The notes under the pieces are model-generated. The model was not told where the DNA came from and ran no database searches. It saw nothing but the letters and a program-made list of their open reading frames with translations. A program made the translations under genes and the position numbers. A stretch of 64,000 bases of DNA. Origin: Rhodobacteraceae bacterium HTCC2083 (GTDB taxonomy: Bacteria > Pseudomonadota > Alphaproteobacteria > Rhodobacterales > Rhodobacteraceae). Where the stretch lies: assembly GCA_000156115.1 (NCBI GenBank), contig DS995276.1:872017-936016 (forward strand), in the 5' to 3' direction. Shown here piece by piece: positions 48,359 to 63,307 of the stretch (position 1 is the stretch's first letter; each line of letters begins with the position of its first letter).

Positions 48359-49480
48359 ATGCAAAGATTTGATATTGCGGTTGTCGGCGCTGGAATTTCG
48401 GGCGCGTCTGTCGCGGCGCGTCTTGCGCGAGCGGGCAAACATGTGGCGCTGCTCGATATGGAAAGTCAGGCAGGCTATCATACGACAGGCCGCTCCGCCG
48501 CAATCTTTGCGCCAAGCTATGGACCTGCAGTGATCCGCGCCCTTGCTCGCGCGTCCCAGTCATTCTTTGAAACCCCGCCTGAAGGATTTAGCGAGACACC
48601 GCTCTTGTCCCCGCGTTTAATCATGATGCTCGCGCGCGCCGATCAACAGGCCGCCTTGGACGGATTAAGCGCGCAACTCGGAGACGATCCAACAATAAGT
48701 GTTGTGGATGAACCAGCATTGCGCGCCATAAACCCATTGGTGCGCGCTGGTTATGCAAACGGCGCGCTCCTCGATAGGGCAGGTCAGGATATAGACGTCA
48801 ACGCATTGCATCGCGGTTTTTTGCGTCAACTTACAGCCGCTAGCGGCACGATACTGCTGAATGCCGAAGTTCATACAATGACGCGCCAGCAATCTATTTG
48901 GACGCTCAACACGAAAGCAGGCGAGGTCGAAGCCGAAATTGTCGTCAATGCTGCTGGGGCTTGGGCAGATAAATTGGGTCAAATGGCGCAGGCGGAACAC
49001 ATCAGGTTGCTACCAAAGCGACGTACCGCGATGATGATTACCGCGCCACGCGAGCTTACGCCTGATTTTCCCATGACTATCGATATCGAAGAACAGTTCT
49101 ACTTGAAGCCTGAAACAGGGCGCTTGTTGATCTCACCTGCGGACGAAACGCTCTCTTATCCCTGCGATGCACAGCCCGAAGAATTGGACATCGCCATCTG
49201 CGTGGATCGCATTGAGAAAGCCTTTGATCTCAGCGTGCGCAGAATTGAAAGCAAATGGGCAGGGCTCCGCAGTTTTGTCGCTGACGGCACTCCTGTCGCA
49301 GGGTTTTCGCAACGCGTTGATGGGTTCTATTGGCTCGCAGGTCAGGGTGGTTACGGCATTCAAACGGCACCAGCGTTAAGCGCATATGCAGCTTGTGAAA
49401 TACTTGGGGAAGCGCCCGCGGCAGAGCTGGCCCTAGCAGGCGTCGATCCAAAGGACCTTATGGTTACACGTTTGTCTTAA
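48359..49480 (+). CDS. FAD-dependent D-amino-acid dehydrogenase (DauA-like)
   Basis: 373 residues of the DAO family: FDIAVVGAGISGASVAARLA for FAD, then GYHTTGRSAAIFAPSYGPAV, which resembles D-arginine dehydrogenase DauA, and C-terminal WLAGQGGYGIQTAPALS. It probably deaminates a D-amino acid or related amine; the substrate is inferred only from similarity. GGGAGGTG precedes ATG 48359. Its 3' end overlaps the convergent puuD by 4 bp. Confidence 0.85.
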   Translation: MQRFDIAVVGAGISGASVAARLARAGKHVALLDMESQAGYHTTGRSAAIFAPSYGPAVIRALARASQSFFETPPEGFSETPLLSPRLIMMLARADQQAALDGLSAQLGDDPTISVVDEPALRAINPLVRAGYANGALLDRAGQDIDVNALHRGFLRQLTAASGTILLNAEVHTMTRQQSIWTLNTKAGEVEAEIVVNAAGAWADKLGQMAQAEHIRLLPKRRTAMMITAPRELTPDFPMTIDIEEQFYLKPETGRLLISPADETLSYPCDAQPEELDIAICVDRIEKAFDLSVRRIESKWAGLRSFVADGTPVAGFSQRVDGFYWLAGQGGYGIQTAPALSAYAACEILGEAPAAELALAGVDPKDLMVTRLS

Positions 49481-50733
49481 TTACTTGCTTGCACCACATC
49501 GACAGTACCCGCGTTGCGATACCATTTCACGATCTTCGCGCGATCCTCTTCGGGCAGCTCTGTAATATTCGCGGGCGGCATTGCGTGGGACACCCCCGCT
49601 TGCAAATAGATCTCACGCGCAGCACGCGCGATATCATAGCGCGTCTCTAAAAAAACGCCCTTCGGGGCCCAACGGATACCGTCCCAGCTTGGCTCTCGAC
49701 CATGACACATGGAACAACGCCCCAACACAATATTCTCCACCTCTTCATAACCAGCAGAGGCCACCAACATCTCTTGATGCGCCGACAATGGCTGGGCCTC
49801 AGACACATCGTAATCCTGATCCCATGTGTTGGCCGTACTGAGCCACGCGATGATGATCATCAAAACCACAGTCACAGCCCAGGTCCAGTGCGGACCCTTC
49901 CCCGTGGAATGCAGCGTGTTGAAATAATGGCGGATCGTAACTCCCGTGAGGAAAATCAGCGACGCGATAATCCAAGAATACTGCGTCCCGAATGCCAAAG
50001 GATAATGGTTCGAGAGCATCAGGAAAATCACTGGCAAAGTCAGATAGTTGTTATGTGTGCTGCGCAATTTTGCGATCTTGCCGTACTTTGCATCCGGCGT
50101 GCGCCCTGCCTTGAGGTCCGCGACAACAATGCGCTGGTTCGGCATGATGATGAAGAAAACATTCGCCGTCATGATCGTTGCGGTGAACGCACCCAAATGC
50201 AAAAGCGCGGCGCGGCCAGTGAAGACCCCGTTGTATCCCCATGCCATCACTACGAGGATCACAAATAGCAAAACCATCAAAAGCGTCGGCGATTCACCAA
50301 GCTTTGATTTGCACAGGAAATCATACGCAATCCAACCGATCGTCAAAGAGCCCGCAGAAATCACGATCGCCATGAACACCGACAAATCGGCTTTCGCGGG
50401 GTCAATCAGGAATAGCTCCGCACCAGCCCAATAGACAATCATCAACAAAGCTGCGCCAGAGACCCAAGTGATATAGCTCTGCCATTTGTGCCAGATCAGA
50501 TGCTCCGGCATATTTTCAGGAGCAACAAGGTACTTTTGAATATGGTAAAACCCGCCCCCATGCACTTGCCATTCTTCGCCAAACACACCCTCGGGCGCAT
50601 GCGGCGCTTTACGCAAACCGAGATCCAAAGCGATGAAAAAGAACGACGCACCAATCCACGCCATGGCCGTGATCACATGCAGCCAACGCACTACAAACGC
50701 TATCCAATCCCAGAGTATTGCGAAATCATACAT
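49477..50733 (-). CDS. puuD: Membrane urate hydroxylase with cytochrome c domain
   Basis: 418 residues. About eight membrane spans fill the first 320 residues (VRWLHVITAMAWIGASFFFI at the start), followed by a c-type cytochrome tail with CSMCH at 340-344 and a possible axial Met in SHAMPP. PuuD oxidises urate to 5-hydroxyisourate and passes electrons to the respiratory chain instead of making peroxide. It is divergent from a LysR gene with a shared promoter, and the next enzyme, UraH, is 2 kb away. Confidence 0.93.
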   Translation of the reverse strand: MYDFAILWDWIAFVVRWLHVITAMAWIGASFFFIALDLGLRKAPHAPEGVFGEEWQVHGGGFYHIQKYLVAPENMPEHLIWHKWQSYITWVSGAALLMIVYWAGAELFLIDPAKADLSVFMAIVISAGSLTIGWIAYDFLCKSKLGESPTLLMVLLFVILVVMAWGYNGVFTGRAALLHLGAFTATIMTANVFFIIMPNQRIVVADLKAGRTPDAKYGKIAKLRSTHNNYLTLPVIFLMLSNHYPLAFGTQYSWIIASLIFLTGVTIRHYFNTLHSTGKGPHWTWAVTVVLMIIIAWLSTANTWDQDYDVSEAQPLSAHQEMLVASAGYEEVENIVLGRCSMCHGREPSWDGIRWAPKGVFLETRYDIARAAREIYLQAGVSHAMPPANITELPEEDRAKIVKWYRNAGTVDVVQASN

Positions 50734-50829: not shown

Positions 50830-51735
50830 ATGTCTTACTTCGATAACCTTCGCACCTTCGTGCGCATTTACGAGCTTGGTAGCATGTCCGCCGCCGCGCG
50901 TGATCAACGCATTTCGCCTGCTGTCACCTCTGCACGCATCTCGCAACTGGAATCGCATCTAGGCGTGCGTTTGTTTCAGCGTACCACGCGCTCTTTAACA
51001 CCTACGGAGCAAGGTCGCATCTTTTATGATGGCGCATGTGCTGTTCTGGAGGCGGTTGAGGCTGCCGAAGCGGGTGTCGGCGACGCCACCGAGAATCCGC
51101 GCGGCACTTTGCATATTGCGGCACCCTTGGGAGTTGGTCGTCGCCTCATCGCGCCGCATGTCCCCGAATTTACGCGCGAGTTCCCCTTGGTAGACGTGCG
51201 CCTACGCATGACAGATCGCAAGATTGACCTTACTGCCGAAGGCCTCGACATCGCTTTCTTCCTAGGGCGTCCTGAGGATTCCAATCTGCGTATTCGCAAA
51301 ATCGCCGATTGCGACCGCGTCCTTTGCGCCGCGCCCTCCTACATTGCCAAACATGGTCATCCCAAGACGGGTGCCGAGATTGATCGCGGAAAGCACAATT
51401 GTCTCAACCTCCGCTTTCCCGGTGCACGTGAGTTCCAATGGGAGCTTTCCACCCCCGATGGGCCCCGCAAGTTCGATGTCCAAGGACGGTTCGAGTGTGA
51501 CGACAGCGATGTTCTCACCGATTGGGCCTTGCAAGGCGCTGGCATCGCTTTGCGCCCCGTCTTCGAGATCGCAGATTATTTGACCTCTGGCGCATTGGTC
51601 ACTGTCTCCGAAGACACCCCACCCTTGCCTGTGCAAATGGCGTGTTTATATACCCACCGCCGCCACCAGGACCCCAAAGCGCGTTTGTTTATGGAGTTTA
51701 TGATTGAGCGGATGGAGGGGGCTGTGAAGGCGTGA
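50830..51735 (+). CDS. LysR family regulator, probably of purine catabolism
   Basis: 301 residues. N-terminal winged helix FDNLRTFVRIYELGSMSAAA and SARISQLESHLGVRLFQRTT, then a LysR substrate domain (GTLHIAAPLGVGRRLIAPHV). The subset is the CrgA/DsdC-like proteobacterial group that represses or activates divergent genes. Divergence from puuD and the inverted repeat between them suggest control of urate degradation. Confidence 0.9.
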   Translation: MSYFDNLRTFVRIYELGSMSAAARDQRISPAVTSARISQLESHLGVRLFQRTTRSLTPTEQGRIFYDGACAVLEAVEAAEAGVGDATENPRGTLHIAAPLGVGRRLIAPHVPEFTREFPLVDVRLRMTDRKIDLTAEGLDIAFFLGRPEDSNLRIRKIADCDRVLCAAPSYIAKHGHPKTGAEIDRGKHNCLNLRFPGAREFQWELSTPDGPRKFDVQGRFECDDSDVLTDWALQGAGIALRPVFEIADYLTSGALVTVSEDTPPLPVQMACLYTHRRHQDPKARLFMEFMIERMEGAVKA

Positions 51736-52435: not shown

Positions 52436-52789
52436 TCAACTCCCCCGATACGTCGAATACCCAAACGGAGAGAGCAACAGAGGCACGTGGTAATGCGCGG
52501 CCTCTGACATACCGAACCGCAAAGGCACAACATCCAAGAAACGAGGGCTTTCAGGCGGAACACCACACGCATCAAGGTACGCGCCGCAGTGGAACACCAA
52601 CTCGTATTCACCCAGCTCGAACTCTTCAGCAGGCAAAATCTGTGCGTCGGTGCGACCGTCGTCATTCGTCACAACACTCTTCAACTTAGCGCGCGTCTCG
52701 CCCTCGATGCGGTAAAGATCAATCGCAAGCCCAGCCGCAGGGCAACCGCGTGCCGTATCCAAAACATGTGTCGTCAAATATCCGGCCAT
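52436..52789 (-). CDS. uraH: 5-hydroxyisourate hydrolase
   Basis: 117 residues of the transthyretin-like family: [20 protein letters not shown] at the N-terminus and the diagnostic C-terminal YRGS. It opens 5-hydroxyisourate made by PuuD to OHCU. Start is ATG 52789, eight bases after AGGAG; a GTG three codons earlier is less likely. It is divergent from the puuE gene. Confidence 0.95.
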
Positions 52790-52933
52790 CGCGCTCACTC
52801 CTGATTTGCTTGATTATGTCGCATCTTTCTCTATCACGACGAAAGTTTGATCAATCCGATAGTGCATTCGGCTTTTTTTGAAAAAACTTTTTCATCTTCT
52901 GGTTTATCAGAGGGAAACTAGGAGAAGATTGCA

Positions 52934-54331
52934 ATGACTCGTTACCCTCGTGATATGCATGGTTATGGTGCAACGCCACCGGCCGCGAATTGGCCCAATG
53001 GTGCAAAAATCGCAGTACAAATTGTGATGAACTACGAAGAGGGCGGCGAGAACAACATCCTGCACGGTGATGCCGCGTCAGAAGCGTTCTTGTCCGAGAT
53101 TGTTGGCGCCGCAGCCTGGCCCGGTCAGCGTCATTGGAATATGGAATCGATCTACGAGTACGGCGCGCGCGCAGGGTTTTGGCGCCTCCACCGCTTGCTA
53201 GAAAACACGCCAATCACTGTTTATGGTGTTGCGACAGCGCTAGCCCGTGCACCTGCGCAGGTCCGTGCGATGAAAGAGGCTGGCTGGGAAATTGCCAGCC
53301 ATGGTCTTAAGTGGATTGAATACAAAGACGCAAGCGCCGACGACGAAAAGGCCGACATGGACGAGGCCATTCGCCTTCACACAGAAGTCGTCGGCGAGGC
53401 CCCGCGCGGCTGGTACACAGGGCGCTGTTCTTGCAATACAATTCAGCTTGCTGCTGAAAATGGCTCTTTCAAATACGTCGCTGACTCCATCGCGGATGAT
53501 GTGCCTTATTGGATGGAATTCGGCGAACACGATCAACTCGTTGTGCCCTACACGATGGACGCTAACGATATGCGCTTCGCCACACCGCAAGGCTTCAACA
53601 CAGGCGCGCATTTCTTTGAATATCTAAAAGCTAGTTTCGATGTGCTCTACGCGGAAGGTGGTCGCATGATGTCGATTGGCTTGCACTGCCGCCTTATGGG
53701 ACGCCCCGGTCGCGCGCAGGCGCTTCAGCAGTTTCTTGAATATGCCAACAGCCACGAGGATGTGTGGTTCGCCACCCGCGAGCAAATTGCGGATCATTGG
53801 GCGGCACAAAACCCCCATGTCCGTTATGCGCGTCCTTCCGAGATGAGCCGCGAAACTTTCGTCACCAAATTTGGCTCCATCTTCGAGCATTCCCCTTGGA
53901 TCGCCCAAGGCGCGTTTGAGCTAGAATTAGGCCGCACCCACGACACAGCCATCGGCCTGCACAACGCGCTTTGCCGTATATTCCGAAGCGCTACCGAGGA
54001 ACAACGCCTAGGCGTGCTGACCGCACACCCTGATCTTGCTGGTAAACTCGCGCAGGCCAAATCGCTTACGGCAGAGAGCACGTCAGAGCAAGCTGCTGCA
54101 GGACTTGATTTCCTCACCGAGGATGAAAAAGCGACCTTCACCAAACTCAATACCGAGTACGTTACGAAACACGGCTTTCCCTTCATCATCGCTGTGCGCG
54201 ATCATGACAAGGCGAGCATCCTTGACGCCTTCAACCGACGCACCAAAAACGATCGCGACACGGAATTCAAAGAGGCCTGCAAGCAGGTCGAACGCATCGC
54301 CGACTTTCGCCTGATGGATATCCTGCCGTGA
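52934..54331 (+). CDS. puuE: Allantoinase PuuE fused to OHCU decarboxylase
   Basis: 465 residues. Residues 1 to about 300 are a polysaccharide-deacetylase-like allantoinase: RYPRDMHGYGATPPAANWPN, ASHGLKWIEYK and GRCSCNTIQLAAENG. From about 303 (MSRETFVTKFGSIFEHSPWI) to the end it is an OHCU decarboxylase (UraD) with LTAHPDLAGKLAQAK and HGFPFIIAVRDHDKASIL. One polypeptide thus makes allantoin from OHCU and opens it to allantoate. This fusion is known in proteobacteria. The stop overlaps allA by 4 bp. Confidence 0.93.
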   Translation: MTRYPRDMHGYGATPPAANWPNGAKIAVQIVMNYEEGGENNILHGDAASEAFLSEIVGAAAWPGQRHWNMESIYEYGARAGFWRLHRLLENTPITVYGVATALARAPAQVRAMKEAGWEIASHGLKWIEYKDASADDEKADMDEAIRLHTEVVGEAPRGWYTGRCSCNTIQLAAENGSFKYVADSIADDVPYWMEFGEHDQLVVPYTMDANDMRFATPQGFNTGAHFFEYLKASFDVLYAEGGRMMSIGLHCRLMGRPGRAQALQQFLEYANSHEDVWFATREQIADHWAAQNPHVRYARPSEMSRETFVTKFGSIFEHSPWIAQGAFELELGRTHDTAIGLHNALCRIFRSATEEQRLGVLTAHPDLAGKLAQAKSLTAESTSEQAAAGLDFLTEDEKATFTKLNTEYVTKHGFPFIIAVRDHDKASILDAFNRRTKNDRDTEFKEACKQVERIADFRLMDILP

Positions 54332-54816
54332 GCATGCAGATGCAAATCCAGCCAATCACCAAAGAGGCTTTCGCGCCATTTGGCGATCTGATCGATTGCA
54401 CAGGTGATCCCGACATGATCATCAATCTAGGCAAATGTGGCCGCTACCATGACCGCGCGCAGATAGACTTTGGCACAGGGCGCGCTGGCCTTAGTTTCTT
54501 CAAGGCAAAAATCCGCACGCTGCCTTATGAATTCAATTTGGTCGAGCGTCATCCGCTCGGCAGCCAAGCCTTCATTCCGATGAGCGAACATGGTTTCCTC
54601 GTTATCGTCGCACCTGATGAGAACGGCACACCCGGCGCGCCCATCGCATTCGAGACACAACCCGGCCAAGGCATCAACTTTCACAAAGGCACATGGCACG
54701 GCGTGCTTACACCGCTCGCAGGCACAGGACAGTTCGCCGTTGTTGATCGCATAGGTGATGGAAACAATTTGACAGAATTTTTGCTCAAGACCCCACATAT
54801 TGTGGTAAGGGGCTAA
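54328..54816 (+). CDS. allA: Ureidoglycolate lyase
   Basis: 162 residues of the AllA cupin: KEAFAPFGDLIDC, the region VERHPLGSQAFIPM and GQGINFHKGTWHGVLTPL. It splits ureidoglycolate to glyoxylate and urea. A GTG start overlaps puuE; in-frame ATGs at 54334 and 54340 are alternatives. The glyoxylate product is the substrate of the bhc operon 1.8 kb downstream. Confidence 0.93.
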   Translation: MSMQMQIQPITKEAFAPFGDLIDCTGDPDMIINLGKCGRYHDRAQIDFGTGRAGLSFFKAKIRTLPYEFNLVERHPLGSQAFIPMSEHGFLVIVAPDENGTPGAPIAFETQPGQGINFHKGTWHGVLTPLAGTGQFAVVDRIGDGNNLTEFLLKTPHIVVRG

Positions 54817-54871
54817 ATACGGACTGACGCAGAAGCGGTCCACACTCACAGCTATGAAGGGGAGAATACCA

Positions 54872-56200
54872 ATGGCTGATACTTCACTGGGCGCATACAG
54901 CGACCCGAATACCACTCCACCAATGGGCCAAGCCGTTCCGCTTGGCGCGCAGCACGTTTTGGCGATGTTTGCGTCTAACGTCACACCATCCATCATCGTT
55001 GCAGGTGCCGCTGGCCTAGCATTTGGTAGCGCAGAGCAAGTTTACCTGATCCAAATGGCAATGCTGTTTGCGGGTATCGCAACGCTCTTCCAAACAGTTG
55101 GTGTGGGCCCAGTCGGTGCACGTTTGCCAATTATGCAAGGTACAAGCTTTGCATTTGTTGGTGTTCTTGCTGGCATTGCGGCGACGCAAGGTCTTGGTGT
55201 TGCGCTCACAGCCTGCATCATCGGTGGGGTGATCCACTTCTTGCTTGGCTCTGTCATTCAACACTTGCGTTTCTTGTTTCCACCACTCGTGACAGGTCTC
55301 GTTATTCTGGCAATCGGCCTCTACCTTATCCCAGTTGCGATCAAATATGCAGCGGGCGGCGCGGCCTCCTTCCAGATGGAAGCAGAGAGCTTTGGCTCCC
55401 TCAAGCACTGGTCCGTCGCGCTTACTGTGATCGTAGTATCCCTGATCCTGAAGTTCTTCACCAAAGGCATCCTGTCCATGGCGGCGATCCTCATCGGTCT
55501 CTTGGCTGGCTACACACTCGCGTTTGCACTTGGCATGGTGAACTTCGCAGCGGTCGGTAAAGCAAGCTGGATTACATCCATTCAGCCGCTTCCTTATGGT
55601 TTTGAGTTCAACCTCGGCGCAGTCATCGCTGTCACGCTCGTTTCCATCGTCTCCGCGATTGAGACTGTGGGCGATGCTTCGGCAACAACCAAAGCCGGTG
55701 CAGGTCGTGAAGCCACCGACGAAGAGATCGCAGGCGCAACATACGCTGACGGTCTGGGTACAGCAGTTGCAGGCGTATTCGGCGGTTTGCCAAACACATC
55801 CTTCAGCCAGAACGTCGGTATCATCGGCATGACAGGCGTGATGTCGCGTCACGTTGTAACCATCGCTGGAGTGATTATGATCGTCTGTGGCTTGGTTCCG
55901 AAAATCGGCGCACTCATCGCCTCCATGCCTTTGCCAGTTCTTGGCGGCGGTGTGATCGTGATGTTCGGCATGGTTGCTGCCGCAGGTCTTAATGTTCTTG
56001 CAGAAGAAAAGATGACACGTCGCACGATGATCATCATCGCCGTGAGCCTTGCGTTTGGTTTAGGTCTCAACCTTGTGCCAACAGCCGTTCAGTATCTGCC
56101 AGGCGTTGTAAAGACACTCGCAACATCAGCGGTTGCTCCAACTGCTCTGATGGCGATTGTTCTGAACTTGGTTCTGCCACAGGAAATGGACGAAGCGTAA
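54872..56200 (+). CDS. NCS2 family uracil/xanthine permease
   Basis: 442 residues, about 14 spans. The NCS2 signature QNVGIIGMTGVMSRHVVTIA and the substrate loop AIETVGDASATTKAGAG point to the xanthine/urate branch of the family. GGGGAGAATACC precedes ATG 54872; an upstream ATG at 54854 is less likely. Located right after allA, it probably imports urate, xanthine or related purines. A strong terminator follows. Confidence 0.93.
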   Translation: MADTSLGAYSDPNTTPPMGQAVPLGAQHVLAMFASNVTPSIIVAGAAGLAFGSAEQVYLIQMAMLFAGIATLFQTVGVGPVGARLPIMQGTSFAFVGVLAGIAATQGLGVALTACIIGGVIHFLLGSVIQHLRFLFPPLVTGLVILAIGLYLIPVAIKYAAGGAASFQMEAESFGSLKHWSVALTVIVVSLILKFFTKGILSMAAILIGLLAGYTLAFALGMVNFAAVGKASWITSIQPLPYGFEFNLGAVIAVTLVSIVSAIETVGDASATTKAGAGREATDEEIAGATYADGLGTAVAGVFGGLPNTSFSQNVGIIGMTGVMSRHVVTIAGVIMIVCGLVPKIGALIASMPLPVLGGGVIVMFGMVAAAGLNVLAEEKMTRRTMIIIAVSLAFGLGLNLVPTAVQYLPGVVKTLATSAVAPTALMAIVLNLVLPQEMDEA

Positions 56201-56226
56201 ACACAGCTCCACTCACAAAACTAATA

Positions 56227-56258
56227 AAAGGCGCTCCGATTTGGGGCGCCTTTTTTCG
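56227..56258 (+). terminator. Rho-independent terminator after the purine permease
   Basis: AAAAGGCGCTCC, loop, GGGGCGCC and six T residues. It closes the puuE-allA-permease transcript. Confidence 0.85.
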
Positions 56259-56298
56259 TTTCATCACTATAATCTCTAACCAACTCGGGAGATATCTA

Positions 56299-56597
56299 AT
56301 GGTCGACAGCGAGGGCGCGCTCGCCTTACTCGTTGGCGAAATCAATCCAGATGTTCGCCTTGTTCCAAAGTACGGTGGCCACGTCATGTGTCCTAAAGCC
56401 GGCAATGACAAAACCTTTGTGGGCGGTTTTTCACCTACAAAGACCACGTCTCCTTAGAGTTCTCCAAAGATGCCGCGCTGAATGGCCCTGAGACCCATCT
56501 CGAAGGTTCCGGCAAGCTGCGTCGCCACCTCAAACTAAAAAGCGTCTCTGACATTTCTGCCAAAGACGCTAAATCTTTCCTCATGAAAGTGCTTTAA
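56299..56597 (+). pseudogene. DUF1801 protein with one-base frameshift
   Basis: Starts well (GGGAG before ATG 56299) with VRLVPKYGGHVMCPKAGNDK. At 56429-56433 the run of five T residues seems one short: adding a T restores GGFFTYKDHVSLEFSKDAAL and LRRHLKLKSVSDISAKDAKS to the stop at 56595-56597. DUF1801 proteins are small and of unknown biochemical role. The 3' end overlaps the convergent bhcD stop. Confidence 0.75.
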
Positions 56598-57559
56598 AAG
56601 TCGACCTCAATCGCGACGCCCTGCTCAATCGCCATGCGGACAATTGCGGCTGAAACGGCGAGGTCCTGCAAGCCAACGCCCGTCCCGTCAAACAGCGTAA
56701 TCTCTTCTTCAGAGGTTCGCCCCTCGTGCGTGCCATTGATCACTGCGCCTATCTGCGTGACATCACTCACAGCAATCAAACGCTCAGCAATCGCATGCTG
56801 CGCTTCACCAATGGACACAGACTGCGCCACCTCATCCGTAAATACGCTCGCGCGCGCCAAAAGCGCTGCTTCGACTTCTTGCTTGCCTTTGGTATCCGTT
56901 CCCATGCACGCGATATGCGTGCCAGCGCTGATATGCTCCGCCATGATCGTCGGCGCAAAAGTAGAAGTAATCGAAATCACAACATCCGCTTCACCCAGGC
57001 CATCGAGTTCGACTGCTTCAAACGGAACACCGGCCTCGTTGGCAACCTTCTCTATATTGGGCAACATCTCAGGATGATAGTTCCAGCCTATCACTTTCTC
57101 AAACGCACGCTGTTCTAAAGCGGCGCGTAATTGAAACGTCGCTTGATGCCCTGCACCGACCATGCCCATCACTTTGGCATCCGCGCGCGCCAAGTGCTTG
57201 ATCGACACAGACGATGCCGCCGCTGTCCTCAAAGCCGTAAGATAATTCCCTCCAACCATCGCTGCGACTTTGCCCGTGTCAGGATCAAACAGAAACACAG
57301 TCGACTGGTGATTGATCAACCCACGCTTCTCCAAATTATGTGGCCAATACCCACCAGCTTTCAAACCAAGCGTTCCACCAACACCATCAAATCCACCCTT
57401 AAAGCCATAAAGCGCATCCTCATGCCCAATCGCTTCACGGATCACCGGAAAGTTATACGCATCTCCCGCTGCCATCGCTGCGAACACATTCTCAACCGCT
57501 TCAAACGACGCATCCCGTGTCAATAAATCTGCAATTTCTCGCTCTGGTACGATCCACAT
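56594..57559 (-). CDS. bhcD: Iminosuccinate reductase BhcD
   Basis: 321 residues of the ornithine cyclodeaminase/mu-crystallin family: GYWPHNLEKRGLINHQSTVF, VAAMVGGNYLTALRTAAASS, MGMVGAGHQATFQLRAALEQ and CMGTDTKGKQEVEAALLARA. In the beta-hydroxyaspartate cycle BhcD reduces iminosuccinate to aspartate, regenerating the amino donor. Last gene of the bhc operon; a repeat copy and 81 bp separate it from bhcC. Confidence 0.9.
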   Translation of the reverse strand: MWIVPEREIADLLTRDASFEAVENVFAAMAAGDAYNFPVIREAIGHEDALYGFKGGFDGVGGTLGLKAGGYWPHNLEKRGLINHQSTVFLFDPDTGKVAAMVGGNYLTALRTAAASSVSIKHLARADAKVMGMVGAGHQATFQLRAALEQRAFEKVIGWNYHPEMLPNIEKVANEAGVPFEAVELDGLGEADVVISITSTFAPTIMAEHISAGTHIACMGTDTKGKQEVEAALLARASVFTDEVAQSVSIGEAQHAIAERLIAVSDVTQIGAVINGTHEGRTSEEEITLFDGTGVGLQDLAVSAAIVRMAIEQGVAIEVDF

Positions 57560-57570
57560 ATGCTCTTCCT

Positions 57571-57596
57571 ATTTCCATAAATATCCTAAGAGTTTG
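57571..57596 (+). repeat. Intergenic repeat, copy C
   Basis: ATTTCCATAAATATCCTAAG matches copies at 3775-3798 and 13512-13537. It lies between bhcC and bhcD, in the opposite orientation to the operon, ending just before the bhcD ribosome site. Confidence 0.6.
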
Positions 57597-57640
57597 CGAG
57601 CTAGCCCCCAACTCGGTCGGATTGCCTCAGCAATTCGAAA

Positions 57641-58801
57641 TCAAAACGCTTTCCCGCGTGCGGACACAGGCCAAAGTGTTTCAACCTTGCCACCGCGCAC
57701 GCCCACATACCAATCATGCACATTACACGTCGGATCACAGTGGCCAGGCACCAACTTAAGCTTGTCGTTCACCATCAAAACACCATCAGGATCGCCGACA
57801 ACCCCATGCTCATCGGAACATTTCAGATATTCGACATCGTGGCGCCCAAACACAGTGGGCAAACCACTATCCACCGATTGCGCTTTAAGGCCCGCATCGA
57901 CAATCGCCTTGTCGGCTTTGGAATGGCTCATAACCGTCGTCAGGATAAACAACGCATTTTCCCACTCGCCCTCATCAATCCGCTTGCCATCTTTGTCCAA
58001 AATCCGCCCATAGTCCGCATCCATAAACGCATACGAACCACATTGAAGTTCATTAAACGCGCCAGAATTGCTCTCGAAATAGTACGAGCCCGTGCCGCCA
58101 CCTCCAACGATGTCGCATTCAAGACCAACGGCCTTCAAACCCGCCAAAGCATCCTCCACCATGCCAATCGCAACACCCGTCTTCTCACTACGATCCGCGT
58201 AGGAATCCATGTGCTGCATAGCGCCTTGGTACGCTTGGATGCCCGCAAATTTCAGACCCTCTGCCGCATCAATCATCTTGGCAATCTCGACAACGGCCTC
58301 AGTCGTCGTCACGCCACACCGCCCAGCGCCGCAGTCAATCTCAACCAATGCTTCGATCTGCGTACCATGCTTCACAGCCGCCGCAGACAGATCCGCGACA
58401 TTCGCAGGATCATCCACACAGCACAGCACACGCGCGCCAAACTTGGGCATGCGTGCCAAGCGGTCGATCTTCGCCAGATCCGTCACCTGATTGGACACCA
58501 TCACATCCTTGATACCGCCGCGCGCAAACACTTCCGCTTCAGACACTTTCTGACAGCACACACCACACGCGCCGCCTAGGCTCTCTTGCAGCTTCGCCAC
58601 ATCTACGGACTTGTGCATTTTGCCATGCACACGGTGCCGCATCCCGTGCGATTTCGCATAATCGCCCATCTTCTTGATGTTGCGCTCTAAGGCATCCAAG
58701 TCCAGCACAAGCGCAGGTGTTTGAATGTCAGCGGCGTCCATGCCCGGCACTGCGGGAACATCGTAGCCAACTTCCAGCTCATCGAAATTGATATCTTTCA
58801 T
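57641..58801 (-). CDS. bhcC: Beta-hydroxyaspartate aldolase BhcC
   Basis: 386 residues of the D-threonine-aldolase-like alanine-racemase fold. TPALVLDLDALERNIKKMGD then HRVHGKMHKSVDVAKLQESL carries the PLP lysine; CGYC-like metal sites near the C-terminus include HDVEYLKCSDEHG and VPGHCDPTCNVHD. It joins glycine and glyoxylate to (2R,3S)-beta-hydroxyaspartate. GGAGACGATCC precedes the ATG. It is 12 bp after bhcB. Confidence 0.92.
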   Translation of the reverse strand: MKDINFDELEVGYDVPAVPGMDAADIQTPALVLDLDALERNIKKMGDYAKSHGMRHRVHGKMHKSVDVAKLQESLGGACGVCCQKVSEAEVFARGGIKDVMVSNQVTDLAKIDRLARMPKFGARVLCCVDDPANVADLSAAAVKHGTQIEALVEIDCGAGRCGVTTTEAVVEIAKMIDAAEGLKFAGIQAYQGAMQHMDSYADRSEKTGVAIGMVEDALAGLKAVGLECDIVGGGGTGSYYFESNSGAFNELQCGSYAFMDADYGRILDKDGKRIDEGEWENALFILTTVMSHSKADKAIVDAGLKAQSVDSGLPTVFGRHDVEYLKCSDEHGVVGDPDGVLMVNDKLKLVPGHCDPTCNVHDWYVGVRGGKVETLWPVSARGKAF

Positions 58802-58813
58802 AGGATCGTCTCC

Positions 58814-59767
58814 TTAGTTCAAAGTCCATGGCAGCTTGTCGAGATCGACATTACCGCCCGTAAGAATGACACCGACGCGCTTGCCCGCGAACCGGTCTTT
58901 GTTCTTTAAAATCGTGGCGAGCGGCACCGCCGAGCTCGCCTCCATCACAACGCGCAAATGCTTCCACGTCAGTTTCATCGCATCGATGATTTCCTCTTCA
59001 GACGCGGTCAGAATGTCGGTCACGTGGTTGCTCACAAAATGCCAAGTGCGTTCTTTCAACGGCACCAACAATCCATCTGCAATCGTCTTGGGCGCATCAT
59101 CCGCAATGATATACCCCGCCTTAAAACTGCGCATGGCATCGTCCGCCTGCTCAGGTTCTGCCGCGATGATCTGCACCTCAGGAGCCATATGCGAGAGCGT
59201 CAAGCAGGTGCCTGAAATCATCCCGCCACCTCCAACCGGAGCCATGGCGATATCAAGCCCATCGACCTGTTCCATAAACTCGCGCGCACAAGTCCCCTGC
59301 CCAGCGATCACACGCGGATCGTTGTAGGGATGCACGAAATCACCGCCTGTCGCCTCTTGCACCTTTGCGAATGTCGCTTCGCGCGAGGTTGTCGATGGCT
59401 CACATTCCGTGATGATCCCACCATAGCGGCGCACGGTGTCTTTCTTGGCTTGGGGTGCCGTGCTCGGCATTACCACATTGCACGGAATTCCGCGCAGCAT
59501 TGCCGCATAACTCAGACAAGACGCATGATTGCCAGAACTATGTGTCGCAACACCATGCTTCGCCTGCTCATCGCTTAGGCCAAACACTGCATTGCTCGCG
59601 CCGCGCACTTTGAACGCACCCGGCTCTTGAAAGTTCTCGCACTTAAAGAACAGCTCTGCACCTGTCAGCTCATTGAGGAATTTCGATGTGCGCACAGGTG
59701 TCCGATTGATATGCGGTTTTATCCGCTCATGCGCCTCAAGCATGTTTTCAAAAGTAGGAATATACAT
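58814..59767 (-). CDS. bhcB: Beta-hydroxyaspartate dehydratase BhcB
   Basis: 317-residue fold type II PLP enzyme of the threonine dehydratase/serine racemase group: FKCENFQEPGAFKVRGASNA with the PLP lysine, SSGNHASCLSYAAMLRGI and the Gly-rich loop PVGGGGMISGTCLT. BhcB removes water from beta-hydroxyaspartate to give iminosuccinate. The ATG at 59767 is four bases from the bhcA stop. Confidence 0.92.
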   Translation of the reverse strand: MYIPTFENMLEAHERIKPHINRTPVRTSKFLNELTGAELFFKCENFQEPGAFKVRGASNAVFGLSDEQAKHGVATHSSGNHASCLSYAAMLRGIPCNVVMPSTAPQAKKDTVRRYGGIITECEPSTTSREATFAKVQEATGGDFVHPYNDPRVIAGQGTCAREFMEQVDGLDIAMAPVGGGGMISGTCLTLSHMAPEVQIIAAEPEQADDAMRSFKAGYIIADDAPKTIADGLLVPLKERTWHFVSNHVTDILTASEEEIIDAMKLTWKHLRVVMEASSAVPLATILKNKDRFAGKRVGVILTGGNVDLDKLPWTLN

Positions 59768-59771
59768 CTGC

Positions 59772-60938
59772 TTAGGCTCCAAACCGATAGAATTCTTGCG
59801 CTGCACCCACGCCTGAGCCAAGCTTGATATCAAAACCCAAGTCCTTCATCACCATCTCCGCCACGCCAAGGCCAGACAGCATCATCGCATCCGTCAACAT
59901 CCCCAAATGCCCGATACGAAACACCTTGCCTGCAACTTCGCCAAGCCCAACACCAAACGCCATGCCATACTGCTCATCTGCACGGGTCACGATGTCGGTC
60001 GCGTTGAACCCTTCAGGGGTGCGGATGGCAGAGACACTATCGGAATATAGCTCTGGCGCGTTTGCGCAAAGCTCTAGCCCCCAAGCGTCCACAGCGTGAC
60101 GCACACCTGTCGCGATGCGCGTATGACGGGCAAAGACGTTTTCCAGCCCCTCAGCTTCGATCATTTCTAGCGAGTGCTTCAAGCCGTTCATCAAACCAAC
60201 AGGTGGCGTATAAGGAAACGCATTCGCGGCGTAGCCCTTTTCCATATCGCGGATATCAAAGAAGGTGCGCGGCAAAGTTGCGATCTCAACAGCGGCGCGG
60301 GCTTTGTCAGAGAAGCCAACAATCGCGAGACCCGCGGGCAACATAAAGCCCTTCTGCGAACCTGTCACTGCAACATCAATGCCCCAATCATCCATGCGAA
60401 AATCCATGGACCCGATAGAAGATACCCCATCCACAAAAAACAGCGCTGGATGCGCGGCAGCGTCGAGCGCTTTGCGCACGCCAGCAATATCAGACTTAAC
60501 GCCTGTCGCAGTTTCATTATGGGTCGCAAGCACTGCTTTGATGCTATGACCTGTATCGGCTTTCAAGATTGCCTCATATTCAGCCACAGGCAGGCCATCG
60601 CCCCACGCAGCTTCAACAATCTGCACGTCCAAGCCATGACGCTCACACATATCAATCCAGCGATGCGAGAACATACCGTTGCGCGCGACGAGGACCTTAT
60701 CACCAACTGACAGCGTGTTGGTCAGCGTCGTTTCCCAACCACCTGTACCAGTCGATGGGAAAATATAGATATGCGCTTTCTCGGATTTCAGAACGCGGCG
60801 AACGCCATCAAGACAAGGGTGTAGGATGCCGCCAAAAATAGGCGAGCGATGATCAATTGTGGGCATGTGGCACGCAAGACGGATCTCCTCTGGCATATTC
60901 GTTGGACCGGGTATGAAGACAGGGTTTTGAAAACTCAT
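59772..60938 (-). CDS. bhcA: Aspartate-glyoxylate aminotransferase BhcA
   Basis: 388-residue class V aminotransferase: FIPGPTNMPEEIRLACHMPT, STGTGGWETTLTNTLS and the PLP lysine in VTGSQKGFMLPAG. It moves the amino group from aspartate to glyoxylate, giving oxaloacetate and glycine; together with BhcB, BhcC and BhcD two glyoxylate become one oxaloacetate. First gene of the operon, with AGGAG before ATG 60938. Confidence 0.93.
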   Translation of the reverse strand: MSFQNPVFIPGPTNMPEEIRLACHMPTIDHRSPIFGGILHPCLDGVRRVLKSEKAHIYIFPSTGTGGWETTLTNTLSVGDKVLVARNGMFSHRWIDMCERHGLDVQIVEAAWGDGLPVAEYEAILKADTGHSIKAVLATHNETATGVKSDIAGVRKALDAAAHPALFFVDGVSSIGSMDFRMDDWGIDVAVTGSQKGFMLPAGLAIVGFSDKARAAVEIATLPRTFFDIRDMEKGYAANAFPYTPPVGLMNGLKHSLEMIEAEGLENVFARHTRIATGVRHAVDAWGLELCANAPELYSDSVSAIRTPEGFNATDIVTRADEQYGMAFGVGLGEVAGKVFRIGHLGMLTDAMMLSGLGVAEMVMKDLGFDIKLGSGVGAAQEFYRFGA

Positions 60939-60997
60939 GAGGCTTCTCCTAACAAAGGTTGGATCCTTGTTAGACAGCCTACGCACACTTGGAAATT

Positions 60998-61007
60998 TTT
61001 TCGAAAA
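60998..61007. promoter_or_regulatory. Palindrome in the bhcA-bhcR gap
   Basis: TTTTCGAAAA, a perfect 10-bp palindrome, 60 bp before bhcA. It is a candidate part of the BhcR binding region. Confidence 0.4.
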
Positions 61008-61063
61008 CAATATCAGATGTATCATAACCAGAAAAAATTGTTTACTTTCAGACTATTGATTTT

Positions 61064-61076
61064 TTCATATTATGAA
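61064..61076. promoter_or_regulatory. Palindrome before bhcR
   Basis: TTCATA, one central T, TATGAA, in a very AT-rich stretch 37 bp before bhcR. A further TTCATA begins at 61084, 20 bases on, about two helical turns. It could be an operator for BhcR autoregulation. Confidence 0.45.
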
Positions 61077-61112
61077 TGCTAATTTCATAATATTCTATTT
61101 GAGAGAATTTTC

Positions 61113-61949
61113 GTGCCCAAATTACCCGATTCTGAGATTCCTCGCACCCGTGGGCGACCGCGCGCGTTCAATGAAAAGACAGAGCAGAACACGATTAAAT
61201 CCCTTGATCGTGCACTTGGCGTTCTTAAGGAACTCGCCCAAATCGAAAGCGCGACGCTCAGTGAACTCGCCACCGCTATGAAGGAATCCCCCGCCACGCT
61301 CTACCGCGTGCTCACCACATTTGCGCTGCACGGTATAGTCGAAATGGACGAGACGGCGCAGACATGGCACATCGGGTCAGAGGCCTATCAGATCGGCTCT
61401 GCCTTCTTGCGGCGCACCAGTTTGATCGATGTCTCACGTCCCATTTTACGTAAGCTCATGCAAGAAACTGGTGAAACCGCGAACTTGGGGATTGAAAAGA
61501 ACGGCTCGGTTTTCTTCATGTCACAGATCGAAACCAATGCGCCTATTCGTGCCTTTTTCCCACCCGGCACGCTGTCTGAGATGCACGCTTCCGGCATTGG
61601 TAAAGCCCTGCTCGCACATATGGATGAAACGCAGCTCAAACGCTTTGCCGCGCGTGGGTTGCAAACGTTTACGCCCCACACATTGGCAACGCCTGAAAGC
61701 TTGGCCGCGGATATGGTGACCACACGCGAGCGCGGATATGCGCTTGATGATCAGGAAAAGAACCTTGGGATGCGCTGTATCGCAGCACCTATCCAAGATG
61801 CTTATGGTGAGGTGATTGCGGGCATCTCTGTCTCAGGGCCAACCACCCGTGTGAGCACGGATCACATCGAGACGTTGGCCAAATCTGTCATGCGTGCGGC
61901 GCAAGATGTGTCGAACGCGCTTGGGGCGAAGACTTCGGAACCATCGTAG
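61113..61949 (+). CDS. bhcR: IclR family regulator BhcR
   Basis: 278 residues. N-terminal arm with RTRGRPRAFN, an AT-hook-like sequence suited to the AT-rich intergenic region, then the winged helix ATLSELATAMKESPATLYRV and the IclR effector domain (GSVFFMSQIETNAPIRAFFP, MHASGIGKALLAHMDE). BhcR controls bhc genes in response to glyoxylate in Paracoccus. GTG start with GAGAGAA upstream; divergent from bhcA. Confidence 0.92.
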   Translation: MPKLPDSEIPRTRGRPRAFNEKTEQNTIKSLDRALGVLKELAQIESATLSELATAMKESPATLYRVLTTFALHGIVEMDETAQTWHIGSEAYQIGSAFLRRTSLIDVSRPILRKLMQETGETANLGIEKNGSVFFMSQIETNAPIRAFFPPGTLSEMHASGIGKALLAHMDETQLKRFAARGLQTFTPHTLATPESLAADMVTTRERGYALDDQEKNLGMRCIAAPIQDAYGEVIAGISVSGPTTRVSTDHIETLAKSVMRAAQDVSNALGAKTSEPS

Positions 61950-61965
61950 CCCGATACACACGTAA

Positions 61966-61996
61966 AAAGGGCGCTTCGTTTCCAAAGCGCCCTTTC
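61966..61996. terminator. Bidirectional terminator between bhcR and csp
   Basis: AAAGGGCGCTT, a seven-base loop, AAGCGCCCTTT. A-runs and T-runs flank both sides, so it can stop transcripts from both convergent genes. Confidence 0.85.
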
Positions 61997-62034
61997 TATC
62001 AATTTACTTTCACAACCCTCGAAAGGGTACTGGC

Positions 62035-62241
62035 TTATGCCAGAGCGATGTTGATCGCTGCCTCACGACCGTCACGGCCGGGCTCGATGTCGAAAGTAAC
62101 TTTCTGGTTGTCAGCAAGGCCTGTCAAGCCGGAACGCTCAACTGCAGAAATGTGTACGAACACGTCTTTGCTGCCGCCGTCTGGCGCGATGAAGCCGAAG
62201 CCTTTTGTAGTGTTAAACCATTTTACGGTGCCAGTAGCCAT
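62035..62241 (-). CDS. Cold-shock domain protein
   Basis: 68 residues. The RNA-binding motifs KGFGFIAP and DVFVHISA are both intact, in the order of CspA-family proteins. It binds single-stranded nucleic acid and eases mRNA structure. The 5' side is long and free of genes for about 240 bp up to allE, which would leave room for a regulated leader as known for CspA genes. Confidence 0.95.
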
Positions 62242-62482
62242 CGTAATTCTCCTAATATACTGCCCACGGAATGCGGCAGGTCGGCTAGTCAGTGCAAGAT
62301 CGAAACTGAGCCGTAAGAGAGGAGCAGTAGGGTCGATAGTGGTAACGTCGCATCCGTCATATACGAAAGGTGCCTTCATTTTGCAAGGGATTCGACTTTT
62401 ACGGGTAGCAGCGCACGCTAAAAAAGAATTAGAGGAACACGCGCCACAGCAGGAAAATGCGTCGATCTTTTAACCAAGGTTT

Positions 62483-63307
62483 CTACAAACCTAATGGCGC
62501 GTGACGGTTCACATCTTTGTAAAGCAAGTATCGGAATGGGCCAGGCCCACCAGCGTAACATGCTTGCGGGCAGAAGGCGCGGAGCCACATAAAATCACCC
62601 GGGCCCACTTCGACCCAATCAGAGTTGAGTTTGTACGCAGCCTTCCCCTCAAGCACATAAAGCCCGTGTTCCATCACATGGGTTTCCATAAATGGGATCA
62701 CATTTCCAGGCATAAGTGTCACAATCGTCACGTGCATATCGTGGCGCATATCGCTGGGGTCAACAAAGCGAGTCGTCGCCCAACCACCATTCGTGTCCGG
62801 CATTACAGTTGGTGCAATGTCGTTCTCATTCGCGATAATTGGATCAGGTGCATCAAGGCCATCAACAGCGACGTAAGCCTTTCTCAGCCAGTGGAACCGC
62901 GCAGTGTTTGCACCATCATTAATCAGCGTCCACTCCATCCCCGCAGGCAGATAGGCATAGCCACCCGCTTGCAGAATATGGCTTTGGCCCATGAAACTTA
63001 CAGTCACCGCGCCCTCGACGACGAACAAGACACCCTGCGCAGTCTTATCAAGCTCTGCACGTTGACTGCCGCCGCCCGACTGCACTTCCATGATGTATTG
63101 CGAGAAGGTTTCCGCGAAACCCGTCATAGGCCGCGCAATCACCCACAGGCGGGTTTTGTCCCAAAATGGCAGAAAGCTGGTAACAATGTCCCGCATCGTG
63201 CTGGCAGGCAAGAAGGCATAGGCCTCGGTAAAGACCGCTTGACTTGTCAGCATTTCCTGCTGCCCCGGATGCCCGCCACTGGGTGCGAAATATGTACGTT
63301 TTTTCAT
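62483..63307 (-). CDS. allE: (S)-ureidoglycine aminohydrolase
   Basis: 274 residues, bicupin: TYFAPSGGHPGQQEMLTSQA, QAGGYAYLPAGMEWTL in the first cupin, and FMETHVMEHGLYVLEGKAAY with metal-binding His/Glu in the second. It converts ureidoglycine to ureidoglycolate and ammonia, supplying AllA. It lies apart from allA, beyond the bhc operon and csp. ATG 63307 has GGAG six bases upstream; TTG 63319 is a weaker start. Confidence 0.92.
   Translation of the reverse strand: MKKRTYFAPSGGHPGQQEMLTSQAVFTEAYAFLPASTMRDIVTSFLPFWDKTRLWVIARPMTGFAETFSQYIMEVQSGGGSQRAELDKTAQGVLFVVEGAVTVSFMGQSHILQAGGYAYLPAGMEWTLINDGANTARFHWLRKAYVAVDGLDAPDPIIANENDIAPTVMPDTNGGWATTRFVDPSDMRHDMHVTIVTLMPGNVIPFMETHVMEHGLYVLEGKAAYKLNSDWVEVGPGDFMWLRAFCPQACYAGGPGPFRYLLYKDVNRHAPLGL

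What the first reader, a model, noticed from the sequence alone, without database searches (positions are those of the whole stretch)
52436..63307. Purine/ureide catabolism joined to a beta-hydroxyaspartate cycle: a purine-to-oxaloacetate island
puuD, uraH, puuE-uraD, allA, a purine permease, bhcD-C-B-A, bhcR and allE lie within 14 kb. AllA releases glyoxylate, and the bhc operon converts two glyoxylate to oxaloacetate. This offers a route in which purine carbon, not only nitrogen, feeds the TCA cycle without the usual glyoxylate carboligase route. The bhc pathway is known mainly for glycolate use; a purine role is, to my knowledge, not widely described.
Basis: partly seen in the sequence, partly recalled or inferred. 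Interest (0 to 1): 0.8.

Follow-up and report, generated by a model that had tools for sequence, protein, structure and literature searches.

The report
Purine breakdown island with glyoxylate sink
In this marine bacterium the genes that break purines down to glyoxylate lie beside the genes that turn glyoxylate into oxaloacetate, and the pairing recurs in a good number of related bacteria, which suggests that purines may feed them carbon as well as nitrogen.

Summary
Confirmed. puuD, uraH, puuE-uraD, allA, a xanthine/urate permease, bhcDCBA, bhcR and an allE-type gene lie within 13.8 kb; all but puuD pass a curated NCBIfam cut-off (puuD passes Pfam's). No glyoxylate carboligase passes its cut-off here or in 110 sampled genera. 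The pairing is conserved: allA lies within 10 kb of bhcC in 19 of 45 genera (0.24 expected by random placement), glycolate oxidase glcF in 0 of 45. On a bhcABCD tree the linked state needs 17 changes. Some plasmids carry an island from xanthine dehydrogenase to bhc. In Paracoccus denitrificans, where the cycle was worked out, bhcABCD is followed within 41 bases by a xanthine permease, then 8-oxoguanine deaminase and uraH. On two Rhizobiaceae plasmids bhc adjoins glcDEF instead. Best reading: a glyoxylate-induced sink module paired with different glyoxylate sources, often purines in Rhodobacterales; a counterpart of the E. coli allantoin/gcl region. Limits: no expression or growth data; malate synthase and glcF are also present; 24 of 46 bhc genera show no purine gene nearby; in the window the two groups are convergent units; a shared BhcR operator at puuE was rejected.

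The parts
49477..50733 (-). puuD, membrane urate hydroxylase (urate oxidase domain)
   Evidence: PF06181 441 bits; weak C-terminal cytochrome c match below its cut-off
50830..51735 (+). LysR-family regulator divergent from puuD
   Evidence: LysR models, none over its cut-off among the 25 shown; a relative lies between puuD and uraH in 14 of the 19 linked genera
52436..52798 (-). uraH, 5-hydroxyisourate hydrolase
   Evidence: TIGR02962 124.8 over 87.45
52934..54331 (+). puuE-uraD fusion: allantoinase and OHCU decarboxylase
   Evidence: TIGR03212 491.7 over 424.6 and TIGR03164 208.2 over 96.25
54328..54816 (+). allA, ureidoglycolate lyase (releases glyoxylate)
   Evidence: PF04115 183.6, NF009932 172.2 over 160; overlaps puuE by 4 bases
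54854..56200 (+). NCS2 xanthine/urate permease
   Evidence: TIGR03173 436 over 414.15
56226..56254 (+). terminator-like hairpin behind the puuE-allA-permease unit
   Evidence: 13-pair stem followed by T run (pattern scan)
56541..56570 (-). terminator-like hairpin behind the bhc operon
   Evidence: 13-pair stem followed by T run (pattern scan)
56594..57559 (-). bhcD, iminosuccinate reductase
   Evidence: NF045643 579.6 over 500
57641..58801 (-). bhcC, 3-hydroxy-D-aspartate aldolase
   Evidence: NF045642 732 over 690; best solved relative 6qkb, 662 bits
58814..59767 (-). bhcB, beta-hydroxyaspartate dehydratase
   Evidence: NF045641 574.5 over 550; start placed at the Met before the matched stretch
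59772..60941 (-). bhcA, L-aspartate-glyoxylate aminotransferase
   Evidence: NF045640 718 over 650; start placed at the Met before the matched stretch
60942..61112 (.). bhcA-bhcR divergent promoter region with a palindromic candidate BhcR box
   Evidence: dyad TGAAA-N5-TTTCA found de novo in 66 of 123 distinct homologous regions, at most 3 in 10 shuffles; model; the window's own best site, near 61068, is a weaker match (11.7 bits)
61113..61949 (+). bhcR, IclR-family regulator
   Evidence: NF045644 389 over 350; 8 of 9 ligand-site positions agree with P. denitrificans BhcR (mapped by eye)
62035..62379 (-). cold-shock protein, not part of the pathway
   Evidence: CspE/CspA-type matches below their cut-offs
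62483..63307 (-). allE-type cupin: (S)-ureidoglycine aminohydrolase, family named bifunctional with allantoicase
   Evidence: NF008373 499.6 over 445; NF040771 481 over 350; NF040771 over its cut-off in 100 of 110 genera

Best explanation
The island is a purine-catabolic supercluster in which the beta-hydroxyaspartate cycle is the glyoxylate sink. The permease imports xanthine or urate. PuuD, UraH and the UraD half of the fusion turn urate into allantoin, and the PuuE half gives allantoate. The AllE-type cupin, whose family is named bifunctional, gives ureidoglycolate, and AllA splits that into urea and glyoxylate. Glyoxylate acts through BhcR to switch on bhcABCD, and BhcA-D turn two glyoxylate into one oxaloacetate with one NAD(P)H and no CO2 loss, so purines yield TCA-cycle carbon as well as nitrogen. 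The same module can also take glyoxylate from glycolate made elsewhere in the genome. The general rule proposed: bhc is a portable glyoxylate sink that has been joined repeatedly to glyoxylate sources, often purines in Rhodobacterales and glycolate oxidase in some Hyphomicrobiales. Shown here: gene content, conservation, scattered linkage, no gcl over its cut-off. From the literature (P. denitrificans): the chemistry of the cycle and glyoxylate-dependent activation by BhcR. Inferred: AllE bifunctionality in this strain, flux, induction by purines.
For: Gene set over cut-offs. gcl: best own match is acetolactate synthase; 0 of 110 genera over the cut-off and 0 of 110 at E 1e-150, with E. coli ringing as control. 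Allantoicase PF03561 in 2 of 110 and AllC over cut-off in 0 of 110, own genome none, so the AllE-type protein is the likely filler. bhcC-allA within 10 kb in 19 of 45 genera, bhcC-puuE 19 of 45, bhcC-allE 16 of 42, bhcC-glcF 0 of 45; with allE, guaD and xanthine permease counted too, 22 of 46 genera. Of the 19, 17 keep the window's relative gene order and 12 have allE beyond bhcR. The linked state needs 17 changes on a concatenated bhc tree, at least 14 forced by starred branches, shuffled mean 18.4. Several architectures. Plasmid islands with xdh, puuD, uraH, puuE, allA, permease, bhcDCBA, bhcR, allE in Leisingera (with modABC) and Ruegeria. P. denitrificans HAMBI_2443: bhcA-B-C-D, permease 41 bases on, 8-oxoguanine deaminase sharing one base with it, uraH 16 bases on, no terminator-like site in those gaps and a strong one behind uraH; its BhcC is identical over 387 residues to crystal entry 6qkb. 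BhcR as glyoxylate-dependent activator: PMC11323563, section read.
Against: No expression, growth or flux data. In the window the two gene groups are separate convergent units. glcF is nearly universal in the family (103 of 110 over cut-off, own included) and so is malate synthase G (99 of 110, own included), so glyoxylate has other sources and another sink. 24 of 46 bhc genera show no purine gene near bhc (some because contigs end), and 58 of the other 64 sampled genera have allA without bhcABCD, so the pairing is not obligatory. Outside the family, of 7 fetched loci with bhcABCD 2 have purine genes, 1 has glcDEF and 4 have neither. Of 17 plasmid regions opened from 119 records with BhcC, 7 show neither purine genes nor glcDEF, for example Tateyamaria, Aminobacter and Paracoccus Arc7-R13; two of these have a possible hydroxyacid oxidase within the stretch, Agrobacterium and Tateyamaria. 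A shared BhcR box at the puuE promoter was not supported.
Confidence: 0.74

Rival explanations
1. bhc here is a glycolate pathway, as in the literature; its place beside purine genes only reflects the shared metabolite glyoxylate, and purine-derived glyoxylate goes mainly to malate synthase or is spilled.
For: A glcD-like gene, an unassigned gene and glcF in a row in the own genome; glcF over cut-off in 103 of 110 genera; malate synthase G in the own genome and 99 of 110; bhc beside glcDEF in Rhizobium sophoriradicis, Sinorhizobium meliloti Rm41 and one genome of another family in the class.
Against: glcF lies within 10 kb of bhcC in 0 of 45 genera of the family, allA in 19 of 45; linkage was gained or lost many times; in P. 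denitrificans purine genes follow bhcD on the same strand with gaps of 41 bases or less.
Confidence: 0.17
2. The neighbourhood is an inherited arrangement without functional coupling: an ancestral order kept by descent or moved as a block.
For: 17 of the 19 linked genera keep the window's relative gene order, and some copies are on plasmids.
Against: The linked state is scattered over the bhc tree about as shuffled labels are (17 changes, shuffled mean 18.4); purine genes lie on either side of bhc, in several orders, inside and outside the family.
Confidence: 0.07
3. The cluster is for nitrogen only: bhc removes glyoxylate left over when purines are used as nitrogen source, with little gain of carbon. 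This overlaps with the best explanation and differs only in what is gained.
For: Purines are nitrogen-rich; AmiS/UreI transporter genes adjoin bhcD in Leisingera and Sulfitobacter.
Against: Not testable from sequence; the cycle ends in oxaloacetate, so removal and assimilation are the same reaction here.
Confidence: 0.3

Closest known systems
E. coli K-12 allantoin/glyoxylate region (allS-allA-allR-gcl-hyi-glxR-allW-allB-ybbY-glxK-allE-allC-allD)
   Same: Ureide genes (allA, allantoinase, allE), a purine transporter, a glyoxylate-responsive IclR-family regulator and a glyoxylate-assimilation module in one region (AllR function as told in PMC11323563).
   Different: The sink is bhcABCD and not gcl-hyi-glxR-glxK; oxaloacetate is made without CO2 loss; the regulator is of the BhcR family, described as an activator; urate steps (puuD, uraH, uraD) are included; no allC over its cut-off in the genome, and allD was not searched for.
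Beta-hydroxyaspartate cycle of Paracoccus denitrificans (glycolate assimilation)
   Same: bhcABCD order, divergent bhcR, all five over their equivalog cut-offs; 8 of 9 ligand-site residues of BhcR agree.
   Different: Described for glycolate; here the neighbours are ureide genes. In a P. denitrificans replicon the bhc genes are followed by purine genes, which the main text of PMC11323563 does not seem to mention: no occurrence of 'permease', 'xanthine' or 'urate'; its supplements were not seen.
Purine clusters of the puuE/allA type without bhc beside them
   Same: Same enzymes; allA in 103 of 110 and puuE over cut-off in 103 of 110 genera.
   Different: bhcC lies within 10 kb of allA in only 19 of the 45 genera that have both bhcABCD and allA; 58 genera have allA without bhcABCD.

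Membership tests
Beta-hydroxyaspartate cycle operon (bhcABCD-bhcR) | Four enzymes over curated equivalog cut-offs | tested here: met
   718/650, 574.5/550, 732/690, 579.6/500 bits
Beta-hydroxyaspartate cycle operon (bhcABCD-bhcR) | Order bhcA-B-C-D with divergent bhcR | tested here: met
Beta-hydroxyaspartate cycle operon (bhcABCD-bhcR) | Glyoxylate-dependent activation by BhcR | not testable with these tools
   Shown for P. denitrificans in PMC11323563; 8 of 9 ligand-site positions agree in the window's BhcR, position 143 is Pro and not Thr (mapped by eye)
Urate-to-glyoxylate purine pathway | Urate to allantoin: PuuD, UraH, UraD | tested here: met
Urate-to-glyoxylate purine pathway | Allantoin to allantoate: PuuE | tested here: met
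   491.7 over 424.6
Urate-to-glyoxylate purine pathway | Allantoate to ureidoglycolate: allantoicase, or AllC with AllE | tested here: inconclusive
   No PF03561 and no AllC match at E 1e-90 in the own genome; the AllE-type protein passes NF040771, named bifunctional; its activity is not shown
Urate-to-glyoxylate purine pathway | Ureidoglycolate lyase AllA | tested here: met
   PF04115 183.6 over 23
Urate-to-glyoxylate purine pathway | Xanthine dehydrogenase in the same cluster | tested here: not met
   Longest ORF overlapping 46-64 kb of the window is 465 aa, too short for the large subunit; not sought elsewhere in the genome. xdh genes lie near bhc on Leisingera, Ruegeria, Pseudosulfitobacter and P. 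ferrooxidans plasmids
Glycerate (gcl) route of glyoxylate assimilation | Glyoxylate carboligase over TIGR01504 cut-off | tested here: not met
   Best 341 of 711 bits, identified as acetolactate synthase
One operon joining purine and bhc genes in the window | Same strand, no terminator between | tested here: not met
   Convergent, with a terminator-like hairpin on each strand between them

The most novel reading that the evidence does not exclude
In Rhodobacterales the beta-hydroxyaspartate cycle was selected chiefly as the carbon-recovering end of purine catabolism, and glycolate use is a second job. In P. denitrificans the operon in which the cycle was discovered is a purine operon (bhcABCD, xanthine permease, 8-oxoguanine deaminase, uraH), so glyoxylate sensed by BhcR would also raise purine uptake and urate formation, and part of the bhc signal seen in algal blooms may report use of purines released by algae.
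Probability: 0.33. Interest if true: 0.77.

Novelty: new variant of a known kind. Interest (0 to 1): 0.6.

Why it matters
Purines are usually discussed as nitrogen sources for marine bacteria, and bhc genes are read as markers of glycolate use. If bhc serves purines in Rhodobacterales, then purine carbon enters the TCA cycle by a route that spares CO2, and bhc transcripts or proteins in the sea cannot be read as glycolate use alone. The P. denitrificans gene order makes this testable in a laboratory species for which bhcABCD, bhcR and glcDEF deletion strains are described (PMC11323563).

Tried and rejected
Shared BhcR operator. A palindrome found de novo in bhcA-bhcR regions (the window's own region was among those used) has its best match in the whole 64-kb window at the uraH-puuE promoter (15.4 bits at about 52874; the bhcA-bhcR site scores 11.7). 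42 distinct uraH-puuE regions score above shuffles (mean -0.75 against -10.7; 7 over 10 bits against 0.1 per shuffle). The proper control did not support it: of puuE upstream regions, 0 of 20 from genera without bhcABCD, 0 of 20 from unlinked bhc genera and 2 of 22 from linked loci pass 10 bits; over 5 bits the counts are 2, 0 and 6; p 0.064. The common part TTGAAA occurs without bhc too, so it is probably a -35 element. In the other three Planktotalea loci the second half-site is not kept, although one Marivita locus (L158) scores 17.0. Rejected as a general link.

Co-transcription in the window: rejected. Presence/absence co-occurrence: not informative, since allA and glcF are nearly universal. 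Linkage as simple inheritance: not favoured (a quick tree with SH-aLRT support only; gain and loss cannot be told apart; 'linked' means allA, puuE or uraH in the stretch, so loci with only allE or guaD count as unlinked, and some shorter stretches are counted as unlinked). Random-placement expectations ignore shared ancestry; the glcF, glcB and allA-glcF controls in the same genomes are the safer comparison. Linkage counts are lower bounds, because several contigs end near bhc. G072 is counted as bhcABCD although only bhcC and bhcD are on the fetched contig, and G026 although bhcC is cut and bhcD missing at a contig end. Positions for searches were transcribed by hand from the search tables. 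Of 80 named loci picked for BhcA likeness, 71 hold bhcABCD and 32 of these hold allA or puuE; they overlap with the unnamed set and are not an independent count.

No listed paper was seen to describe a purine-bhc link in this open-access library, but two lists were capped (30 of 173, 15 of 50) and most listed papers were judged by title and abstract start only. The 2019 Nature paper on the cycle was not looked up or read. PMC11323563 was seen as passages and two sections; PMC11166783, PMC10499878, PMC12214560, PMC9603854 and PMC8307300 as find results only. PMC9603854 reports that RedB indirectly activates allA in Rhodobacter capsulatus, without a word on hydroxyaspartate.


Full report
What is there. 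The region holds two convergent gene groups and a flanking gene. Going right: puuE-uraD (52934-54331), allA (overlapping by 4 bases) and an NCS2 xanthine/urate permease (54854-56200), with uraH divergent on the left, and beyond it a LysR gene and puuD. Going left: bhcA-B-C-D (60941 down to 56594), with bhcR divergent (61113-61949), then a cold-shock gene and an allE-type cupin (62483-63307). Assignments rest on curated models. Each group is followed by a 13-pair terminator-like hairpin in the 393 bases between them (a pattern scan), so the window shows neighbouring transcription units and probably not one operon. The window lies in a 4.02-Mb genome in 5 contigs. Among the named loci returned, the highest BhcA identities are in Planktotalea (95, 92 and 89%).

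Is the pathway complete? Urate to allantoate is covered by PuuD, UraH and the PuuE-UraD fusion. For allantoate to ureidoglycolate, neither allantoicase (PF03561) nor AllC is found in the own genome at the thresholds used. The allE-type protein passes NF040771, named bifunctional allantoicase/(S)-ureidoglycine aminohydrolase, and so does a protein in 100 of 110 genera. Its closest solved relative is entry 1sq4, 'glyoxylate-induced protein', and the E, H, H, Q positions that I recall as metal ligands of ureidoglycine aminohydrolases are kept (by eye). AllA then gives glyoxylate. No ORF long enough for a xanthine dehydrogenase large subunit overlaps 46-64 kb of the window; the enzyme was not sought elsewhere in the genome.

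Other fates and sources of glyoxylate. Glyoxylate carboligase: the best own match is acetolactate synthase, and none of 110 genera, one genome each, passes the cut-off, while the E. coli control does (in some genomes only 10 first-look candidates were scored). Malate synthase G is in the own genome and over cut-off in 99 of 110. Glycolate oxidase: glcF is over cut-off in 103 of 110 and lies 131 kb from bhcC in the own genome, behind a GlcD-like gene (519 bits, below the strict cut-off but its best family) and a gene in the place of glcE that matched nothing at E 1e-90.

Conservation. BhcC over its cut-off occurs in 45 of 110 genera. I fetched 60 stretches of up to 20 kb around BhcC matches and mapped them. 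I count 46 genera with the bhcABCD set (two, G072 and G026, incomplete at contig ends). Within 10 kb of bhcC: allA 19 of 45, puuE 19 of 45, allE 16 of 42, glcF 0 of 45, each against about 0.24 expected by random placement. Control pairs: allA-glcF 1 of 44, bhcC-glcB 1 of 46. Three more genera have allE (G061), guanine deaminase with a xanthine permease (G091) or all of these (G002) near bhc, giving 22 of 46. Of the 19 linked genera, 17 keep the relative gene order of the window as far as the stretch shows it, and 12 have allE beyond bhcR.

Outside the family. A sample of 397 genomes of the phylum gave BhcC matches at E 1e-140 in 8 genomes of other families. Of 9 loci fetched from them, 7 carry bhcABCD; 2 have purine genes beside bhc in orders unlike the window (L106, L111), 1 has glcDEF (L105) and 4 have neither. 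Named loci with purine genes beside bhc and not from Rhodobacterales by their titles (placement recalled) include Methylobacterium brachythecii L185, which may be the same genome as L106, and Ahrensia sp. L202.

Repeated joining. On a tree of concatenated BhcA-D (65 rows; 22 linked, 39 unlinked, 4 uncounted because the locus is cut or incomplete) the linked label needs 17 changes, at least 14 forced by starred branches, and shuffled labels give a mean of 18.4. The linked state is thus not one clade. Layouts also differ: allE between puuE and allA (G095, G023), purine genes on the bhcR side (L111, L165), a Methylobacterium order (L106), a Paracoccus order, and guanine deaminase with xanthine dehydrogenase on the bhcR side (Pseudosulfitobacter). 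Whether gain or loss dominates cannot be told.

Plasmids. BhcC occurs on 119 of 72,556 plasmid records at E 1e-100. I opened 17 regions from these, picked to span genera and not at random: 8 have purine genes within the stretch, 2 have glcDEF (Rhizobium sophoriradicis, Sinorhizobium meliloti Rm41), 7 have neither. In Leisingera aquaemixtae the island runs from xdhA through puuD, uraH, puuE, allA, permease, AmiS/UreI, bhcDCBA, bhcR and allE to modABC; in Ruegeria THAF33 from xdhAB to allE.

Paracoccus denitrificans. An 8984-base stretch from P. ferrooxidans (bhcA to puuD) is covered completely, in one piece at 93.6%, by a 1.73-Mb replicon of P. denitrificans HAMBI_2443 (the record bears no annotation there). 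In locus L262 bhcD ends at 10300, the permease starts at 10342, 8-oxoguanine deaminase starts at 11823 on the permease's last base, uraH starts at 13183, and a strong terminator-like hairpin follows at 13590 before puuD (permease and deaminase families identified on the P. ferrooxidans copies). The scan found no terminator-like site in the gaps between these genes; two weak ones lie inside the permease gene. The BhcC of this replicon is identical over 387 residues to 6qkb, the crystallised D-3-hydroxyaspartate aldolase (that 6qkb is from the work on this cycle is recalled). So the operon of the model species appears to read on into purine uptake and urate-forming genes. Gaps and strand suggest this; no transcript data were seen. 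Not all Paracoccus share it: Arc7-R13 has bhc without these genes.

Regulation. PMC11323563 (section read) shows BhcR to be a glyoxylate-responsive activator of bhc and places it beside IclR and AllR. Any glyoxylate source could therefore induce bhc. Mapping its Table 1 onto the alignment, the window's BhcR agrees with P. denitrificans BhcR at 8 of 9 ligand-site positions. I looked for the bhc box at purine promoters and reject it as a general link.

Comparison. The nearest known arrangement is the E. coli allantoin region, where allA, allR, gcl-hyi-glxR, allB, a putative purine transporter and allE-allC-allD lie together. The present island is built on the same plan with another sink. I file it as a variant of a ureide-plus-glyoxylate-sink region and as a full member of the bhc family by gene content; the functional feature, induction by purines, is untested.

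Noticed in passing
L089 8612-10608, L096 8612-10581, L100 9451-11363: Three genera have an allE-BhcC pair (aligned parts 5 to 44 bases apart) inside the purine cluster with no bhcA, bhcB or bhcD in the fetched stretch. A BhcC-like aldolase may join glyoxylate to glycine there without the full cycle.
   Followed up: partly
L248 2104-8234: In Sulfitobacter sp. OXR-159 a Tn3-family transposase and an IS1247-like element sit between the bhcR-side IclR gene and bhcA, so the divergent promoter is split; the regulator is annotated as a short IclR protein.
   Followed up: no
L244 13238-14212 and similar places in a number of mapped loci: A gene annotated as glyceraldehyde 3-phosphate dehydrogenase NAD-binding domain protein often follows bhcD on the same strand (my script label AspDH is arbitrary). 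It might act on a cycle intermediate.
   Followed up: no
L255 and L256: Small conjugative plasmids of Phaeobacter and Yoonia carry bhcB-bhcC with two RidA genes, an FAD oxidase and a TRAP transporter near mercury-resistance genes, with no bhcA or bhcD annotated in the stretch.
   Followed up: no
L245 4272-6771: A molybdate ABC transporter (modABC) adjoins the Leisingera island, fitting the molybdenum need of the xanthine dehydrogenase at its other end.
   Followed up: no
window 51919-52356: A 145-aa ORF with no Pfam or NCBIfam match and a stretch LHTHIIPR that recalls the HIT motif (recalled, not tested); no relative was found in the other mapped loci, three Planktotalea loci included.
   Followed up: partly
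G002 contig 1, 55332-63019: Malate synthase G lies 5.6 kb from bhcC with allE between them, so both glyoxylate sinks and a ureide gene are neighbours there.
   Followed up: no
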